A stretch of DNA of 64,000 bases from an uncultured Candidatus Melainabacteria bacterium (GTDB lineage: Bacteria > Cyanobacteriota > Vampirovibrionia > Gastranaerophilales > Gastranaerophilaceae), in contig CANARY010000002.1 of assembly GCA_947364235.1 (NCBI GenBank), positions 248,001 through 312,000 on the forward strand, read 5' to 3'. The first letter of the stretch is position 1; the number at the start of each line of letters is the position of its first letter. Made by a program: the position numbers and the translations under genes. This document shows positions 1 to 60,876 of the stretch, one piece after another. A model generated the notes under the pieces. That model was not told the DNA's origin. It worked only from the letters and a program-made list of their open reading frames with translations, and searched no databases.

Positions 1-509
1 CTTTGCATAATCAGTCTATGCTTAAGATGCTAAGAAATCAGATACGAAATGCAATGACAGCATCTATCGGCGGTGACAGTGTGTTTAAAAATTTGCATGC
101 AATCGGAGTTTCGGTATCTTCTGCTAATGCGAATAATATTTCAACTTCTAACGAAAGTATTATTAATCTGAGTTTTGACAAAGACAGTTTCTTGAAAGCT
201 TATAGTGCTGATGCTGAAGCTGTGAGAGAATTGCTTATCGGTAAAGGGCTCAAAGGTGCAGCAGGAGCAACAGAAGGTGTATTTACCAAGGTTGAAAGTA
301 TTGTTGAAAACGCACTTTCTTCTGTTATTGGATATTTTTCAATAGCTGATGAAGCTTATGCAAGAGAGATTAAGAAAATTGATAATAAGATTGTTAAAGG
401 AACGGAAGCTATAGAAAAATATCGTGCAAGACTGAATAAAAAGTTTAATTCTATGGATATGTTAATTTCTAACATGCAGAATCAGTATAGTTCGTTTTTA
501 GGTGCTTGA
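1..509 (+). CDS. fliD: Flagellar hook-associated protein 2 (FliD), C-terminal part, cut by window edge
   Basis: The reading frame is open from the first complete codon (base 3), so the gene starts left of the window and only about 168 C-terminal residues are visible. They align along their whole length with the C-terminus of the giant FliD-like protein at 53188-60633: both have an HNQS..LK.LRNQIRN stretch at the start, an FDKD.F.KA motif, and end in a long charged helix followed by NMQ.QYSSFL. This is the FliD_C region, which in known FliD packs with the N-terminal helix to form the inner D0/D1 part of the filament cap at the flagellar tip. There is no sign of disruption; the truncation is due to the window. 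No obvious terminator follows in the 62 bases before the next gene. Confidence 0.88.
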   Translation, partial: LHNQSMLKMLRNQIRNAMTASIGGDSVFKNLHAIGVSVSSANANNISTSNESIINLSFDKDSFLKAYSADAEAVRELLIGKGLKGAAGATEGVFTKVESIVENALSSVIGYFSIADEAYAREIKKIDNKIVKGTEAIEKYRARLNKKFNSMDMLISNMQNQYSSFLGA

Positions 510-53187: not shown

Positions 53188-56100
53188 TTATGTAGTTAAG
53201 AAGCTTGAATACTGCTGCTGCATGTTTGCAATAAGAATATCCATAGATGCGAATTTTGCTTCGAGTTGTGCTCTGTATCTTTCAAGCGCTTTTTTCTGCC
53301 TTTCGATTTTGTTTTCGATTTTGTTGACCTGTTTTTGATATGAATTTTCTGCTGTATCGAAAAATCCAGTTACAGATTTTAGCGAAGATTCAACCAAATC
53401 TTCAATTTTGGTCAAGACTCCTGTGTTATTATTGCTTCCAATGAGCAGGGCTTTCAAAGCATCTTCATCCGCTTCAAATGCTTTTATAAACTTATCTTTG
53501 TCAAAAGTTAATGTCGTTATTCCTGCAGTAGAAATATTGTTTGCTTTGGCTGCTTCTGCACAAATTCCAATTGCATCAAGGTTTCTAAAAACAGTAGTTC
53601 CTGCATCAGAACTTGTCATTAAATTTCGAATCTGATTTCTTAAAATTTTTAAAACAGACTGGTTGTGAAGCTTGCCGTCTTTTGCAATCGCTTCATCAAC
53701 ATTTTTTATTAACTCATTATACGAATCAACGATTTCCGAAACAGCATTCGCGAGGGTTTCTTTATCTCTTTCAACTGTTAAAGTTACAGCAGAACCATCA
53801 GTTAAGCCTTTTAAGTTAATTGTTAATCCTTTGATTCTGGAAATGTCGCTTGTAATGTTGTTAGAATTCGAAGTGTATGTAGTACCGTTAATTGAGAATT
53901 TAGCATTATTGCCAATATGTTGTACAGATATATTCATTTTAGTAGTATCTACTGAACCGTCAGCGTTTCTATCTGTGTTCGTAAATCCCATGATATCAGT
54001 GAAATTGCTTGTACCAGCTTCAATGTTAATTAATGCAGAGCCTGTGGTTCTTGATTTAATCACAAGGCTGCCGTCTATAGAATCCCAGTAAGCTGTTGCG
54101 TTGGCTTCATCAGATGCATTAATTTGTGCAATTAAGTCTGCCATTCTGGTGTTATTTGAAATGTTGAAAGTCGCATTCCCGACTATAAAAGAGCCTTCTG
54201 TAACGTCACCTTTTCTAAATAGTCCTGAGTTTGTGATTATGGAGTCGGAGTTAACGCAGAAAAGTTCACGTGCGCTTTTTACAGCTCCGCTGCCGTCGTT
54301 TATGAGTCCGCAAATGGCAGAAATATTTGAAGTATCGGTAGTTGCTCCGACTTCTATAGAGTCGCCTTCTGTTTTTGAGAAGAATTTCAGATATCCATTT
54401 TCAAAAGTAATATCAACATCAGAGAAAGCAGCTGAGATTCTTGCTCTAAGGTCTCCGAAAGTTTCATCTTTTTTTACTTGTATTGTAGCTTTTTGTCCGT
54501 TTTTGTAAATGGAAAGCGAACCATCAGATATATTTAGCAGTCCCATTTTAGTATCAAGAGCTGCGTAGTTTGCTACTGAGAAAGTTTTTTCTTCAATAAG
54601 TGTTGTTGTTGCTTTAGTTGTATCTGAGCTTGCTGCAAATCCTCCTAAATCTTGCTTATATGTTAGTCCGATAGTTGCTAAGAGGCTTGAAGTTGTGCCG
54701 TCGGTATTTATTGTAAATGTATTATATCCGCTTTGAATCATTATTTCTCCGTCAGAGGAAATAGCTGCTTCCAGCCCGAGTGCTTTGAACTTATCCAGAA
54801 GCGAGCCGAAAGTTTCATCTTGTGTGATTTCGATTTTAGCATTTTCACCGTTTATATTAACAGACAAAGTACCTTCTGCTTTTAATGTATCTGCTCCCCA
54901 AGGCTTGTTGAAATAGCTAAGAAGCGTTTCTTCTGTAGCGGCAGAGAATGTTGTAACGATTTCAGAAGTTTGTTCAAGTCCTGTGTATTTGTAGCTTGAA
55001 GAGTGGTCGGTGTTACCAAAAAGTTTTTCAACTACATTGGATGAGTCAGTGGTGCTTGTAGATTTTGTAATATATGAGTCACCTGCGCCTATAATTGTTA
55101 ATACAGATTTATCTCCGTTTGTAACTAGGGATGTTTCTATTCCGAAAGATTTGAGCGTATCAAGTAAAGAGCCTAAAGTTTCGCCGGTGGAGATGTAAGC
55201 AGTGTATTTAACTCCATTATTGTAAATGAAGTATTCACCTGTAGTTACTCCCAGAAGAGAGAGCTCTGTGTCGCGAGTTGCTGAGGCATCAATAGTTGAA
55301 GTTTTGATAACATCAAGAGGTTTGCCTTCGTAAGTATTAGTTTGAATCCAGTTATTAAGGTCAATTCCGAGGATTTCGAGAGCGTTAGAAGCTCCTGTTC
55401 CTGCGTAATTTTGAAGCAGGCTGTTACCAGTATTTTTGAGGATGAGCTGTCCTTTTTCATTGATAACTGATTCAAACCCGTATAAAGAAAGTGTGTCCAT
55501 TAACGTTCCAATCGTATCATCTTCGGTTAAAGTTATATTAGTTTGAATACCGTCTTTTACAACTGTTATGAGTCCTTCTTTGTAAATACCTTCGTTAATG
55601 TCTTTTAGTTTTGTATCTCGGTTGACTGCAACAATTTTGTCTTCCGGAATTTCTAAGTTATTTGAAGTGTATATGTTGACGAAATTCCATTCACTAAAGA
55701 GTGTAGATACGATGTTGGAGTTAGCGCCTGCAGCTGCAGAGGCTGCTAAGTATGAGTTGTGGTGAGCTCCAATTGAAATTGAGCCGTCTTCACTGATATC
55801 GGCAACGAGTCCGTTTTTAGCAAGCATTGCCATTAAATCGTTAACAGTCATGTCAGCTGTAATTGTTTCAGTTGTTCTGACTCCTTTGTTGTATACATAA
55901 AATGCGCCTTCAGAGATACCGAGGTTGTTTCCGTCTTTGTCTTGTAGTTCTGACAGTTTGGTTTCTCCGCTGATTTTGTTATTGTTATTTACTGTATATT
56001 TGAGGTTATTGCTGGTTGAGTCGTATCTTGTATTCCAGTTGCCATCAACGTTAAGTTTTTGCAGTATATTAGAAGCTCCTGAGGTGAGTCCTTGTGTAGT

Positions 56101-59100
56101 CATGTAAGAATTATTGTTTCCGTCGAAGTATATTTTACCGTCGGAAGCAAGGTTCATTGTAATTCCGTACTGAGCGAGTTTGGAACTTAGCGTTTGGAGC
56201 GTATCATCGTTATTGATGTTAACAAGATAGCGGGTACCGTCTTGGTATACGTAGATGCTGCCTGAAGTGATACCTAAGGAAGTACCATTGGAAGATGTGA
56301 GTTGGTTTAGTTTTGTTGAAAGAGTTGCACTATTGGTGATTGTTCTATCTTGCGTACCAGAGTTTGTGTTAAATCCTTCAACTGTAGTTGAAGTTTTTGT
56401 TGTGTAAGCACTTTTTGCTCCAAGCATTGCTGCCGAACCGGTTGTATTGGTGATATATCCTGAGCTGGTGCCTTTGAATGTCATTGAACCGTTTGAAACG
56501 GAAGTTTCTATTCCATACGCAGCAAGTTGTGCAGCAAATCCGTCAATTGTTGTCATGTTATTAATGGTAACAGTAAATGCTTCGCCGTTATAAACCCCGC
56601 TTACGGTGCCGGCATTCATACCGATATCACGAAGCTGCGTGTTTCCATTCAGTTCATAACCTGTCGAATACTCATTGTGGTCTGTTGAAGATTTGTTGGC
56701 GGTTACTGTTCTTGTTGAAGTTACATCAACAGTAATGGTTTGGTGAGCTGTAACCGTCACTGTTTGGGATATATTAACTGTGCCGGTGGTATTGACCCGT
56801 TCCGTGCTTGTCGTATTTATTGTTAAGGTCTGTTTGACATTAACAGTGACAGAACCTGTAGTGTCAACTTTTTCCGTGCTTGTTGCGGAAATAGTGAGGG
56901 TTTGTTTTATGTTTATAGTATTAGTACCTGAGGTTGAAACCGTAATCGTTTGCGTGGCGTCTATGGCGAGTGTTTGTTTTATATTAACAGTTGTCGTTCC
57001 CGATGTGGTTACACTTACTGTTTGTGTATCGGATACTGTATAAGTCCGTGTGACGTCCACTGTAACACTGCCAGTGGTGTCTAAGGCAACAGTGAATGTG
57101 TCGACAATTGTTTTAGTAACAGCTACGCTGACTGTGCTTGTTGTACTTATTGTAGAAGTTTTGTTAACAACAGTAGTAACATCTCTAGTTGTGTAAAAAC
57201 CTGAGCTGCTGACACCTGCGTAAACACCTGAACTTCCATATTGTGTATATATTTTTAATTTCGATGCAGAGCTGGAATCAAGCCCCCAGCGCATAGAGTT
57301 TTCGTAGTTTGCATAAACATAAAAGGAGCCATTTGTTTCATCAAAGTCAAATATTACACCAATTTCGTTGTTATTTAACTTCCTTATCATTGTTTCAATG
57401 GAGTCGGAAGATGAGATGGAAATAGTCTGTGTGAATGTCTTTCCATCGGAGTGTTTTCCGTTTATAATATAATTTCCGCTAACTCCTATAGAACCTGCGG
57501 TTGTGCTTTTTGATGCAAATGTATAAGACGAAAGAGTTTCTGTAGCAGCAGATGTAGTCGTAATAGTAGTTGTTAGCGTTTGTGCAACTGTCATTGTGAC
57601 CACAGTTGAATTTGTTATGACAGTTGAACCGCTTCCGTTTGCACTAATTGTTTGCGAAATTTTAACAGTTGCAGTATCTGATACGGTAACTGTTGTGGTT
57701 CCAGTAGAAGTAACTGTTAATGTTTTAGTTACATCTACTGTTATTGTTTCTTTTGCGTGTATCGTTACAACTCCGCTTGAGCTTGTATTTACCGTTCGTG
57801 TAACATCAACAACAATAGTATCTTTTGCTGTAACTGTGACGTATCCGCTTGTATTAACAGATGAAACTGTTGTAATATCAACCACTACAGTATCACTAGA
57901 GCTGACTGTTACAAAACCGGAAGAAGTAATTGTTCTGGTCTGGTCAATCGTAAACGTATCAGTTGCTGAAATTGTATTTGTACCTGTTCCGTGCACGCTC
58001 ATAGTGTAATTGTAAGTTGTAAGTCCGAGCGCATCTGCAGCTGTTCCTGTAACATAATAACCTTGAGGTGAAGATATTGTTACAAATCCGCCGTCAATAC
58101 TTCCAGAAAAACCATACTGCCCAAGAATATTTAAGAACTCTCCGATTGTTGTGTTGTCTGCAAAGCTTCCAGAAGCAATTTCTGTTCCGGTTTGACCGTT
58201 CATAATCCGCCATGACTTATTTCCGCCGGAACCTATTTGTGCGAAAGTTGTGGAACCTGTTGCATCTTGAGTAGTTGTATAATGAAAAGCAGAACCGCTT
58301 GAGCTTGTACCTACAGTTGTGGTTACTGTAATTGTTGTTAAAACGCTTGACATTCCAAGTTCTTTGAGAATATCTCCAGTAACATAAGAACCGTTGTTTG
58401 ATGTGAATGTCACAACTCCATTGCTAATTGAACCTTGTACTCCATGGTTGCCAAGTGCTTTGAAAAGTTCATCAAATGTCATTGTTGAGCTTACTGATAC
58501 AGTGGCTTTATTTGTTCCGATTTCATCATGAATAACAAGAGTTTTACTTGCAGGAAGCGTAATAAAATCGCTGATTCGGCTGTCATTATCTGCAACTTCC
58601 CTGACTCTTGCGTAAAGAATATTTGAACTTGTGTATTTGCCTGAAACAGTTGTTGAAAGATTTAGAATAGATGCAAGATTAGAGCTTCCGCCGTTAATAA
58701 CGGCATTTTCTATAGTTAATCTTGAACTATCTGCGTCCCAAATAGAGGATATTCCTACATTTTGAAGAGCTGTCATTAATCCATCAATACTCATTGATTT
58801 TGTTACATTTATAGTTCTGTTTTCACCTCTGACGTTAAAAACTACTGTTCCTTCTTGATTAAGGCTCAGGTTTCCAAGAGTTGTGGTGGTTGAAGCGTTG
58901 ATAGTATTAACAACAGAATAAGTAAGAGCTCTCGATTTTGAATAAGTAGAAGCTACTGAGATTTGGTCAGTAGAAATTACAGGAGAACCGTATAAACAGG
59001 TTAAAATATCTGTACCTTGTTTATAACGATCATCAGTTTCTCGAATAGTGCCGTTGTTAATTAATTCTTTTACTCTGTCGTCAGAAAGTGTTGCAAAAGC

Positions 59101-60633
59101 TCCGCCAGTGATTTCTAATACGCTGTCTTCACGAAGTTTTGTGTAAATGCCTAGATTCCCCATATCAGACATAAAGTCAGCTAAAGTTTGACCGTGGTAA
59201 ATTTTTTCATAAAACTTTTGCCCGTTGGAGTCAGTAACTTCAATATAGCCTGCTCTTACTTTCAAATCATCAACAAGCTTTGTATCCAGTGTTACTGCTT
59301 CAAACGTTTCTACTGTTTCTGTGAGCGGTTTACCAGTAGTCATTGCAGTAAAAGGTTCGGATGTCAACTTCAAAGCATTGATTACATCAAAAGTACCGCC
59401 TGTAATTGTACCTCCAGAAATCTCAACCTTTCCTTCAGAGTTCAGCTCAGCGTAAATGCCTGTGTTTGTAATATCAGAAAGCAGTTTTCCTACTGTCGTG
59501 CCAGTTCCGACTGTTATTGTACTGTATTCATTATTTGAGTTTTTAAGTATAACTGTCTGCCCATTAGTTATATTTATTCCTTCTCCTAAATCTTTTAGCA
59601 GAGTGTTTGAAGTGACTTCTGTACTTGTAATTACGATAGATTTATGACTGAGCTCACCTGAAATCTGAGTGTTTGAATAAATGTCAGAGTCAAGTCCGAG
59701 GGCATCTAAAATATTTGTTGTGCCTTCGTTTGTTATTCTTGCGTCTGAAATAGTTAATACACCGTTGTTATCAAGCCGTGCATCAATATTATTGCTTTTT
59801 AAATCATTAATGAAGCTGCCTAAAGTAGTTGTGTCGTTTATTGTAATTTGGTAATCTGCATCATTGGCGTGAACTTGGATAATTCCGTTTTTTGCACCAA
59901 GTTCAGACATTAGAGTTGAAGCTGTAGCAGCTGAGTAAATGGTGTCAGTCTGTGAAGTTTGAAGAGAATCTGATGTATAACCTTCATTAACCCCTTCAAG
60001 GTGGAGAGCTGTAACAATTCCTGTATTATCAATGTCATTAATTGCATCTTTGTCAATATCAATACAGAAAACACCAGTATTTTCGTTAAAGCTTGATTTT
60101 ACGCCAATTTCTTCGAGCTTGTCTCTAAAAGTTTTTATCGTGTCGTTTTCGGAAATTGTAATATTGCGTTCTATTCCATTTACTGTAACACCTATATTGC
60201 CGGCTTTGACGCCAAGATGAGTGAGTTTTGAATCGTAAGTTGCTGTTGTAGTCTGCACAATTGTTGTCATGTAGGCATAAGTGCTGTTTGCTTCTGTATT
60301 GGTTGCAAGCTGGTTTACAAGAACATCGTATTTTCCTTGTTCTGCTTCAGTTGTAGCAGAAGCGGTCAGTATATCTAGATTAGATGATACAGCTAAGTTT
60401 TGAGCAAAGAGATCCATTGCCGGAATGCCAAATTTTGAGTCAGTAACTTTTTCAATAACTGAACGGAAGGAAGAGAAAAACGACTTAATATTATCCAATG
60501 TTTCTTTGGATAATATAACTTTTTCTTTTTCTTCTTCAAGAGTGTCAATTTTTGCTTGTTTTAGTTTTACAAGCGATTCAACCCAAGAAGACGTATCTAG
60601 TCCGGATGCCAATCCGCTGAATGATATTGTCAT
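53188..60633 (-). CDS. Giant FliD-like flagellar cap protein, 2,481 aa, with hook-IN-like repeats and Thr/Val tandem repeats
   Basis: The ends are FliD: an N-terminal FliD_N motif (FSGLASGLDTSSWVESLVKL and the KIDTLEEEK helix) and a FliD_C end from about residue 2260 (LKGLTDGSAVTL, YNELIKNVDEAI, FLTT tail). Known FliDs are often 400-900 residues. The centre has about sixteen units of 65-110 residues, each with G-I/V-x-V, T-I/L, and L...GI....NG.L.I patterns like the flagellin hook-IN motif. Between units 7 and 9 lie two blocks rich in Thr, Val and Ser (about residues 880-1030 and 1150-1320). The second has five units of about 24 residues such as TTGSVTVNVKQTL. There is no signal peptide, in line with flagellar export. 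The start has an AGGA. Confidence 0.88.
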   Translation of the reverse strand: MTISFSGLASGLDTSSWVESLVKLKQAKIDTLEEEKEKVILSKETLDNIKSFFSSFRSVIEKVTDSKFGIPAMDLFAQNLAVSSNLDILTASATTEAEQGKYDVLVNQLATNTEANSTYAYMTTIVQTTTATYDSKLTHLGVKAGNIGVTVNGIERNITISENDTIKTFRDKLEEIGVKSSFNENTGVFCIDIDKDAINDIDNTGIVTALHLEGVNEGYTSDSLQTSQTDTIYSAATASTLMSELGAKNGIIQVHANDADYQITINDTTTLGSFINDLKSNNIDARLDNNGVLTISDARITNEGTTNILDALGLDSDIYSNTQISGELSHKSIVITSTEVTSNTLLKDLGEGINITNGQTVILKNSNNEYSTITVGTGTTVGKLLSDITNTGIYAELNSEGKVEISGGTITGGTFDVINALKLTSEPFTAMTTGKPLTETVETFEAVTLDTKLVDDLKVRAGYIEVTDSNGQKFYEKIYHGQTLADFMSDMGNLGIYTKLREDSVLEITGGAFATLSDDRVKELINNGTIRETDDRYKQGTDILTCLYGSPVISTDQISVASTYSKSRALTYSVVNTINASTTTTLGNLSLNQEGTVVFNVRGENRTINVTKSMSIDGLMTALQNVGISSIWDADSSRLTIENAVINGGSSNLASILNLSTTVSGKYTSSNILYARVREVADNDSRISDFITLPASKTLVIHDEIGTNKATVSVSSTMTFDELFKALGNHGVQGSISNGVVTFTSNNGSYVTGDILKELGMSSVLTTITVTTTVGTSSSGSAFHYTTTQDATGSTTFAQIGSGGNKSWRIMNGQTGTEIASGSFADNTTIGEFLNILGQYGFSGSIDGGFVTISSPQGYYVTGTAADALGLTTYNYTMSVHGTGTNTISATDTFTIDQTRTITSSGFVTVSSSDTVVVDITTVSSVNTSGYVTVTAKDTIVVDVTRTVNTSSSGVVTIHAKETITVDVTKTLTVTSTGTTTVTVSDTATVKISQTISANGSGSTVITNSTVVTMTVAQTLTTTITTTSAATETLSSYTFASKSTTAGSIGVSGNYIINGKHSDGKTFTQTISISSSDSIETMIRKLNNNEIGVIFDFDETNGSFYVYANYENSMRWGLDSSSASKLKIYTQYGSSGVYAGVSSSGFYTTRDVTTVVNKTSTISTTSTVSVAVTKTIVDTFTVALDTTGSVTVDVTRTYTVSDTQTVSVTTSGTTTVNIKQTLAIDATQTITVSTSGTNTINIKQTLTISATSTEKVDTTGSVTVNVKQTLTINTTSTERVNTTGTVNISQTVTVTAHQTITVDVTSTRTVTANKSSTDHNEYSTGYELNGNTQLRDIGMNAGTVSGVYNGEAFTVTINNMTTIDGFAAQLAAYGIETSVSNGSMTFKGTSSGYITNTTGSAAMLGAKSAYTTKTSTTVEGFNTNSGTQDRTITNSATLSTKLNQLTSSNGTSLGITSGSIYVYQDGTRYLVNINNDDTLQTLSSKLAQYGITMNLASDGKIYFDGNNNSYMTTQGLTSGASNILQKLNVDGNWNTRYDSTSNNLKYTVNNNNKISGETKLSELQDKDGNNLGISEGAFYVYNKGVRTTETITADMTVNDLMAMLAKNGLVADISEDGSISIGAHHNSYLAASAAAGANSNIVSTLFSEWNFVNIYTSNNLEIPEDKIVAVNRDTKLKDINEGIYKEGLITVVKDGIQTNITLTEDDTIGTLMDTLSLYGFESVINEKGQLILKNTGNSLLQNYAGTGASNALEILGIDLNNWIQTNTYEGKPLDVIKTSTIDASATRDTELSLLGVTTGEYFIYNNGVKYTAYISTGETLGSLLDTLKSFGIETSLVTNGDKSVLTIIGAGDSYITKSTSTTDSSNVVEKLFGNTDHSSSYKYTGLEQTSEIVTTFSAATEETLLSYFNKPWGADTLKAEGTLSVNINGENAKIEITQDETFGSLLDKFKALGLEAAISSDGEIMIQSGYNTFTINTDGTTSSLLATIGLTYKQDLGGFAASSDTTKATTTLIEEKTFSVANYAALDTKMGLLNISDGSLSIYKNGQKATIQVKKDETFGDLRARISAAFSDVDITFENGYLKFFSKTEGDSIEVGATTDTSNISAICGLINDGSGAVKSARELFCVNSDSIITNSGLFRKGDVTEGSFIVGNATFNISNNTRMADLIAQINASDEANATAYWDSIDGSLVIKSRTTGSALINIEAGTSNFTDIMGFTNTDRNADGSVDTTKMNISVQHIGNNAKFSINGTTYTSNSNNITSDISRIKGLTINLKGLTDGSAVTLTVERDKETLANAVSEIVDSYNELIKNVDEAIAKDGKLHNQSVLKILRNQIRNLMTSSDAGTTVFRNLDAIGICAEAAKANNISTAGITTLTFDKDKFIKAFEADEDALKALLIGSNNNTGVLTKIEDLVESSLKSVTGFFDTAENSYQKQVNKIENKIERQKKALERYRAQLEAKFASMDILIANMQQQYSSFLTT
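56680..57130 (-). repeat. Tandem repeats of about 72 bp coding Thr/Val-rich units in the giant FliD-like gene
   Basis: Five successive units of about 24 codons encode variants of DTTGSVTVNVKQTLTINTTS (residues about 1168-1290). The last is slightly shorter, with an altered NISQT motif. A further, more diverged set lies at about 57540-57990. Confidence 0.8.
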
Positions 60634-60645
60634 TTTTTGTTCCTG

Positions 60646-60876
60646 TTATACGCTCAAAAGGGGTAAAGAAGATAAATTTAAAGAAAAGATATCAGCTGCT
60701 TTGCATGAGCAAGCGCTGATACCTACTCCAATTAACATTTTTAAAGTAACGAATGTAATATTTATTTTTGGAGTTTTTAAATTTATGCTCTTTCTACGCA
60801 AATTAGCAGTATCTACAGCGCATATTTCAATATGCATCGCTCTTCTTAATAAACTTGTGCTAGTTAAGATATCCAT
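60646..60876 (-). CDS. Possible small protein directly upstream of the giant fliD-like gene
   Basis: A 76-codon frame starts with ATGGATATC and has AGAAG and AGGAAA upstream. Its stop is 12 bases before the FliD-like ATG, whose AGGA ribosome binding site lies in the gap. It has no recognised domain. It contains two Cys near residue 55 and starts MDILTSTSLLRRAMHIE. It lies inside a long transcript leader, so it may equally be chance in structured RNA. Conservation upstream of fliD elsewhere would decide. Confidence 0.35.
   Translation of the reverse strand: MDILTSTSLLRRAMHIEICAVDTANLRRKSINLKTPKINITFVTLKMLIGVGISACSCKAADIFSLNLSSLPLLSV

What the first reader, a model, noticed from the sequence alone, without database searches (positions are those of the whole stretch)
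53188..60633. Giant FliD-like protein (2,481 aa) with about sixteen hook-IN-like repeats and Thr/Val tandem repeats
The N- and C-terminal parts are clear FliD, but between them is a vast array of repeated beta-rich units with pattern G-x-[IV]-x-V ... T[IL] ... L...GI....NG.L.I, and two Thr/Val/Ser-rich blocks with 24-residue units. A filament cap is usually five FliD subunits of a few hundred residues; here the central part would make a large surface-exposed head. I infer an adhesin or glycan-binding cap that changes the flagellar tip into an attachment organ. The tandem units may vary in number between strains.
Basis: partly seen in the sequence, partly recalled or inferred. Interest (0 to 1): 0.85.

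Follow-up and report, generated by a model that had tools for sequence, protein, structure and literature searches.

The report
Giant, variable flagellar-tip cap protein
A gut relative of cyanobacteria carries, beside an ordinary flagellum tip-cap gene, extra cap genes whose head has been stretched into a long chain of small domains with a rapidly changing outer end, which probably turns the tip of the swimming organ into a grasping or recognition device.

Summary
ORF 53188-60633 (minus strand, 2,481 aa, about 264 kDa) has intact FliD_N and FliD_C ends, exactly 16 hook-IN (Flagellin_IN, beta-grasp) units, and two Thr/Val blocks of 24-residue units. It is no artefact. The same genome has a normal 577-aa FliD (2 units) and a second giant (2,731 aa), whose 3' end is window 1-509. 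Giants of 1,295-6,589 aa (8-35 units) occur in three genera of one family of Ca. Gastranaerophilales (herbivore rumen/gut MAGs). They form one clade (100/99), sister to those genera's normal FliDs. Conservation is U-shaped: ends and flanking unit 'arms' are conserved under purifying selection, but the centre is hypervariable and has been swapped outright between close relatives. The central module is Thr/Val repeats here and GLUG beta-helices in several relatives; the same genome's large flagellins also carry GLUG. Best reading: an alternative filament cap whose D2/D3 head has become a flexible out-and-back arm presenting a variable, probably adhesive, tip. Cap descent is well supported; localisation and adhesion are inferred. 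Unit number varies between species; no DNA-level tandem repeats were found in the array.

The parts
53188..60633 (-). giant fliD paralogue, 2,481 aa, MW about 264 kDa, pI 4.65, 5 Cys, 9 Pro
60298..60606 (-). FliD_N (aa 10-112): D0/D1 N-terminal half
   Evidence: Pfam PF02465 2.7e-15
58018..60231 (-). N-arm: hook-IN units 1-7 (aa 135-872)
   Evidence: unit profile hits; conserved with the ortholog L078 over aa 1-894
57505..58017 (-). Thr/Val block 1 (aa 873-1043), 24-residue units
   Evidence: lag-24 identity 0.34 vs shuffle maximum 0.27; weak Gp5_trimer_C hit E 0.22
57247..57504 (-). hook-IN unit 8 (aa 1044-1129) between the two blocks
56641..57246 (-). Thr/Val block 2 (aa 1130-1331), 24-residue units made of three octads
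   Evidence: lag-24 identity 0.43 vs shuffle maximum 0.28; Gp5_trimer_C 1.2e-4, under the curated cut-off
53980..56640 (-). C-arm: hook-IN units 9-16 (aa 1332-2218); the last units match FliD/flagellin D2-D3 folds
53215..53913 (-). FliD_C (aa 2241-2473): D1/D0 C-terminal half
   Evidence: Pfam PF07195 3.2e-35
60660..60667 (-). TTTACCCC element 34-27 bp before the start codon; TTACCCC is found within 120 bp of the start in 18 of 43 giants and 0 of 27 normal fliD genes
1..509 (+). 3' end of the second giant fliD of the same genome (2,731 aa; G000:C2:240314-248509)
   Evidence: L004:8314-16509; ORF 3..509

Best explanation
It is one of a clade of extra filament-cap (FliD) paralogues. The D0-D1 parts that plug the filament tip are kept. 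The D2/D3 head, two hook-IN beta-grasp domains in a normal FliD, has been multiplied into a string of beta-grasp domains. The chain leaves the cap as an N-arm (7 units), turns at a variable central module (two Thr/Val beta-strand blocks round one unit) and returns as a C-arm (8 units), so the least conserved part lies farthest from the filament. Secreted unfolded by the flagellar export machine, a few such subunits would form a tip with several flexible arms, each ending in a variable head. The head most likely binds surfaces (host mucus, plant fibre, other cells), and the rest of the array is a spacer. Shown: homology, unit count, single origin, arm/centre conservation, cassette exchange, purifying selection. 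Inferred: export through the flagellum, place at the tip, out-and-back geometry, adhesion.
For: FliD_N and FliD_C ends. 16 units vs 2 in normal FliDs and 8-35 in giants; length and unit number correlate at r = 0.92. Unit consensus = Flagellin_IN. Model units reach pLDDT 80-94 and are separated by low-confidence linkers (29-47); the model's best PDB matches are FliD and flagellin D2/D3. Giants of genera g1, g15, g28 are one clade (100/99) beside the same genera's normal FliDs. Window vs L078: aa 1-894 and 1332-2481 colinear, centre unrelated, 16 vs 35 units, same upstream neighbours. L055/L058: ends 95-100% identical, middle 17-36%, no DNA similarity there, while the two genomes' normal FliDs are 95% identical. 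dN/dS 0.015-0.05 at the ends. GLUG modules in relatives' giants and in five flagellins of this genome. Flagellar export genes, FlgK/FlgL and 11 flagellin-type hits. In P. aeruginosa, D1 is FliD's only functionally important domain and larger foreign heads are tolerated (PMC8533109); a beta-helical adhesin, EtpA, binds flagellar tips in ETEC (PMC10284417, abstract).
Against: No binding or localisation data. This protein has no GLUG or other recognised adhesin domain; its Thr/Val blocks are private to this genome among 58 of the genus and could not be modelled (pLDDT 40). A normal FliD is present, so the giant may not cap filaments at all. Export of a 264 kDa (in relatives far larger) chain through the flagellar channel is without precedent that I know of. 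Hypervariability also fits evasion of phages, predators or antibodies.
Confidence: 0.6

Rival explanations
1. Variable shield or decoy: the long head is there mainly to change its surface and escape host antibodies, predatory protists or flagellum-binding phages; binding is secondary.
For: Hypervariable centre with cassette replacement between close relatives and raised or saturated divergence there (dN/dS 0.15-0.45 where it can be computed, against 0.015-0.08 elsewhere).
Against: The arms are conserved, and only a few cap copies exist per filament, so a cap would shield little against thousands of flagellin copies. GLUG modules are an odd choice for a pure decoy. (Inference.)
Confidence: 0.15
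2. Assembly cap for bulky filaments: the giant head makes room for, or chaperones, large GLUG-bearing flagellins.
For: The same genome has five GLUG flagellins, and two g14 genomes with GLUG ORFs of flagellin size also have a giant FliD-like gene.
Against: G103, G125, G185 and G219 have giants but no GLUG hit at threshold (divergent modules can be missed). The genome also keeps a normal FliD. In P. aeruginosa the FliD head is swappable for assembly (PMC8533109). A hypervariable centre is not expected for a scaffold.
Confidence: 0.1
3. Not a cap: FliD ends are kept only as a flagellar export signal, and the protein is shed or sits on the cell surface.
For: A normal FliD is kept in this and most related genomes. 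Giants mostly lack the sigma-70-like promoter of normal fliD (3 of 43 vs 15 of 27) and often carry their own TTACCCC element.
Against: Both D0-D1 halves and the C-terminal coil end (MQQ.YSSFL) are kept under strong purifying selection; an export signal alone would need only a short N-terminus.
Confidence: 0.12
4. Assembly artefact or decaying gene.
For: One relative (G385) has a giant split into two frames of about 2,000 and 1,005 aa.
Against: Intact long frames in dozens of assemblies, synteny, dN/dS far below 1.
Confidence: 0.02

Closest known systems
FliD (HAP2) filament cap, e.g. Salmonella, E. coli and Campylobacter FliD
   Same: FliD_N and FliD_C domains, C-terminal coil, hook-IN beta-grasp head domains; Foldseek matches to cap structures 9m67, 9gnz, 5h5v at E 2e-8 to 6e-8
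   Different: 8-35 head units instead of 2; 1,295-6,589 aa against about 580; inserted GLUG or Thr/Val modules; exists beside a normal FliD
FliDs with extra head domains (H. pylori D2-D5, C. jejuni D4)
   Same: extra domains in the D2/D3 region, showing that the head tolerates growth (PMC8533109, PMC12221982)
   Different: one or two added domains, not a long array with a hypervariable end
Flagellinolysins and giant flagellins
   Same: a functional or bulky domain inserted in the variable surface region of a flagellar axial protein (PMC5595980, PMC7643111; titles and abstracts)
   Different: those are filament subunits in thousands of copies; here it is the cap, in a few copies, with the fold of its own head multiplied
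EtpA of enterotoxigenic E. coli
   Same: beta-helical adhesin acting at the flagellar tip (PMC10284417; abstract)
   Different: EtpA is a separate two-partner-secreted protein; here the head is part of the cap chain
T4 gp5 C-terminal triple-stranded beta-helix / VgrG spike
   Same: octad repeat pattern; Gp5_trimer_C hit to Thr/Val block 2 (1.2e-4), none in six shuffles
   Different: under the curated cut-off and in another context; at best the same kind of repeat

Membership tests
FliD filament cap family | FliD_N and FliD_C domains at the two ends | tested here: met
   Pfam over cut-off, 57.2 vs 24.8 and 122.1 vs 25.4 bits
FliD filament cap family | groups with FliDs in a tree | tested here: met
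   giants are one clade sister to the normal FliDs of the same genera
FliD filament cap family | head of hook-IN (beta-grasp) D2/D3 domains | tested here: met
   16 units; consensus over the PF07196 cut-off; Foldseek to FliD/FliC D2-D3
FliD filament cap family | full-length NCBIfam FliD equivalog cut-off | tested here: inconclusive
   79.5 vs 469 bits; but the genome's normal FliD also fails (130.5 vs 469), so these models do not fit this order and the test does not discriminate
FliD filament cap family | forms a tetra- to hexameric cap at the filament tip | not testable with these tools
   needs cryo-ET or biochemistry
GLUG-bearing surface proteins | GLUG motifs PF07581 | tested here: not met
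   none in the window protein; met in several relatives' giants
T4 gp5-like triple-stranded beta-helix | Gp5_trimer_C over the curated cut-off | tested here: inconclusive
   22.7 vs 30.9 bits; six shuffles give no hit
flagellar adhesin | binds host or surface ligands | not testable with these tools
   inference from position, hypervariability and GLUG modules in relatives

The most novel reading that the evidence does not exclude
The flagellar tip in this lineage is a dedicated recognition organ: alternative caps carry arms of up to 35 beta-grasp beads that present exchangeable heads (GLUG beta-helices, Thr/Val beta-repeats) replaced as cassettes between related bacteria. Caps of several hundred kDa are exported through the flagellar channel and compete with a normal cap, so that a cell can switch between swimming and holding filaments.
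Probability: 0.35. Interest if true: 0.85.

Novelty: new variant of a known kind. Interest (0 to 1): 0.72.

Why it matters
FliD is normally a protein of a few hundred residues. A clade of caps two to eleven times that size, kept beside the normal cap by selection while the outer end is swapped, would show that the flagellum tip can be specialised for recognition by expansion of its head, in abundant but uncultured gut bacteria whose attachment is little known. It also sets a sharp test of how long a chain the flagellar export channel can pass, and offers a modular display scaffold. I found no report of such caps in the papers searched; the library is partial, and genomes outside the order were not surveyed for giant FliDs.

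Tried and rejected
Sigma-28 promoter upstream: strict consensus in 0 of 42 giants and 1 of 27 normals, so no support. DNA-level tandem repeats: TRF finds none in the array, so slippage of repeat DNA is not an evident source of size variation. Sequence search of the PDB with P0001: nothing meaningful. Structure of the Thr/Val blocks: single-sequence model at pLDDT 40, discarded. Profile search for the Thr/Val unit in all fetched loci and a genus search: only the window protein. GLUG in the window protein: none. The idea that bulky flagellins need a giant cap was weakened by giants in genomes without GLUG hits. Caution: the TTACCCC enrichment rests on related sequences and mononucleotide shuffles, so the excess is a lead, not proof of a regulator.

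Full report
Observation. The ORF lies on the minus strand at 53188-60633 and encodes 2,481 aa. Its ends are Pfam FliD_N (aa 10-112, 2.7e-15) and FliD_C (aa 2241-2473, 3.2e-35). A profile seeded with repeats of the window protein, the second giant and the genome's normal FliD, and iterated over 70 FliDs, finds 16 units in it (aa 135-213 to 2138-2218), exactly 2 in every normal FliD examined (27, all from this order), and 8-35 in complete giants. The unit consensus is a Flagellin_IN (hook IN motif) domain by Pfam (35.1 bits, cut-off 22.7). Weak hits to ubiquitin-like families in the same scans fit the published assignment of FliD/FlgL/FlgK domains to the beta-grasp fold (PMC1949818). Both Thr/Val blocks have a clear 24-residue period with an 8-residue sub-period. 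TRF finds no DNA tandem repeat in the array, so the units are old and diverged.

Context in the genome. The unnamed 1.93 Mb, 12-contig genome (99% complete) holds three FliD_N genes: a normal one (577 aa), the window gene and a second giant of 2,731 aa. The second giant ends at window position 509, so the two giants are about 53 kb apart, the window's on the minus and the other on the plus strand. None of the three has flagellar genes next to it in the ORF lists read; the window gene is flanked by a tRNA and a homocitrate/isopropylmalate-synthase-like gene (my reading of the ORF). The genome has fliP-fliQ-fliR-flhB-flhA, flgK-flgL and rod/ring genes (read) and 11 Flagellin_N hits, one of them FlgL. 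Relatives found by the N-terminal profile are nearly all Candidatus Gastranaerophilales MAGs; hosts named in record titles include yak, sheep, goat, horse and rumen samples. Flagella in this order have been reported from genomes (PMC5877343).

A family of giants. In the same genus, 36 of 58 genomes have at least one FliD_N frame over 700 aa (my count; fragmented assemblies make this a lower bound). Giants also occur in genera g15 and g28. They come as single genes, tandem pairs (G330, G219) or a divergent pair (G385). A maximum-likelihood tree of the D0-D1 ends places all giants of the three genera in one clade (100/99) next to the normal FliDs of those genera, so one duplication most likely preceded the split of these genera. 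Genus g14 has a further, very divergent FliD-like giant of 5,924-6,511 aa with 25 units, marginal FliD_N (25.0 vs 24.8 bits) and no FliD_C hit; it falls outside the clade on a long branch and may be an independent expansion.

Arms and a variable end. Window and its syntenic ortholog L078 (5,283 aa, 35 units; same upstream neighbours) align over aa 1-894 (58.5%) and 1332-2481 (69.6%), but the centre, 437 aa here and about 3,240 aa there, is unrelated. Pairs of long giants show high identity at the ends and low identity in the middle (the short pair L048/L053 is nearly even). In L055/L058 the first 200 and the last 430 residues are 95-100% identical, with DNA at 92-96%; the middle of about 1,300 residues has next to no DNA similarity; and the two genomes' normal FliDs are 95% identical: the middle was replaced. 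dN/dS is 0.015-0.05 at the ends of that pair and at most 0.08 over the arms of other pairs where dS is not saturated. In 30 of 38 complete giants one or more non-unit inserts sit between an N-arm (3-17 units) and a C-arm (2-17 units). Of eight inserts of relatives that were scanned, five hit GLUG well over the cut-off (to 4e-37), one at the cut-off and two below it. In the window's genome every GLUG hit at threshold lies in a flagellin gene, between Flagellin_N and Flagellin_C. Thus flagellins and caps of this lineage draw on one module type.

Structure. An AlphaFold2 model of aa 1777-2481 on 18 sequences has confident unit cores (pLDDT 80-94) and uncertain linkers (29-47), pTM 0.36, i.e. beads on a string; relative orientations should not be read from it. 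Foldseek's leading PDB hits are all flagellar caps, then FliC D2/D3. VIA-align places single units on FliD, flagellin and hook proteins at moderate Z of 6-7.6. The Thr/Val blocks could not be modelled. Their octads recall the gp5/VgrG beta-helix (Gp5_trimer_C 1.2e-4, absent from six shuffles; PHROG baseplate assembly protein 7e-4), but under the curated threshold.

Regulation. TTACCCC occurs within 120 bp of the start in 18 of 43 giants and 0 of 27 normal genes, whereas 15 of 27 normal genes and 3 of 43 giants have a sigma-70-like promoter. The element also precedes one large GLUG flagellin of this genome, at C2:183.8 kb. The run of C varies (4 in the window gene, 9 in the second giant's longer run as printed). 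This suggests that normal and giant caps are expressed differently; it is a lead only.

Mechanism. Established knowledge: FliD oligomers (4-6 chains) cap the filament, D0-D1 plug the tip and D2-D3 form the outer plate; heads can be exchanged, also for larger ones, without loss of function in P. aeruginosa (PMC8533109, PMC12221982). Given this, an expanded head is compatible with capping, and its middle, being farthest along the chain from both anchored ends, is the likely distal end. Shown here: descent, unit multiplication, conservation pattern and cassette exchange. Inferred: flagellar export, tip location, adhesion. I put the cap-with-arms reading at about 0.75 and the whole statement, with adhesion, at about 0.6.

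Novelty. No paper found describes giant FliDs or FliD/GLUG fusions, within a partial library; no survey outside the order was possible. It is a new variant of a known kind.

Noticed in passing
G000:C5:146.6k, C5:106k, C12, C7, C2:183.8k (L160-L164): Five large flagellins of this genome (524-818 aa) carry GLUG beta-helix motifs between Flagellin_N and Flagellin_C.
   Followed up: partly
G000:C6:51752-53728 (L172) and C11:10758-11810 (L173): Two further FlhA-family (PF00771) hits beside the flagellar FlhA: one full-length (703 aa) and one matching only the C-terminal half; possibly another type III export system.
   Followed up: partly
G076:C1 (L187) and G108:C9 (L185): In genus g14 a very divergent FliD-like giant of 5,924-6,511 aa with 25 hook-IN units and GLUG motifs; perhaps an independent giant cap.
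   Followed up: partly
window 60660-60667 and upstream of other giants: TTACCCC element before giant fliD genes, absent from normal fliD; the C run differs in length, which would allow phase variation.
   Followed up: partly
L160, upstream of the 626-aa flagellin (C2:183.8k): A run of G bases plus TTTACCCC lie upstream of a large flagellin.
   Followed up: no
G385:C66 (L081, L097): A giant fliD split into frames of about 2,000 and 1,005 aa, either decay or an assembly error.
   Followed up: no
G324:C40:11937-12344: A flagellin frame of 1,393 aa in genus g28.
   Followed up: no
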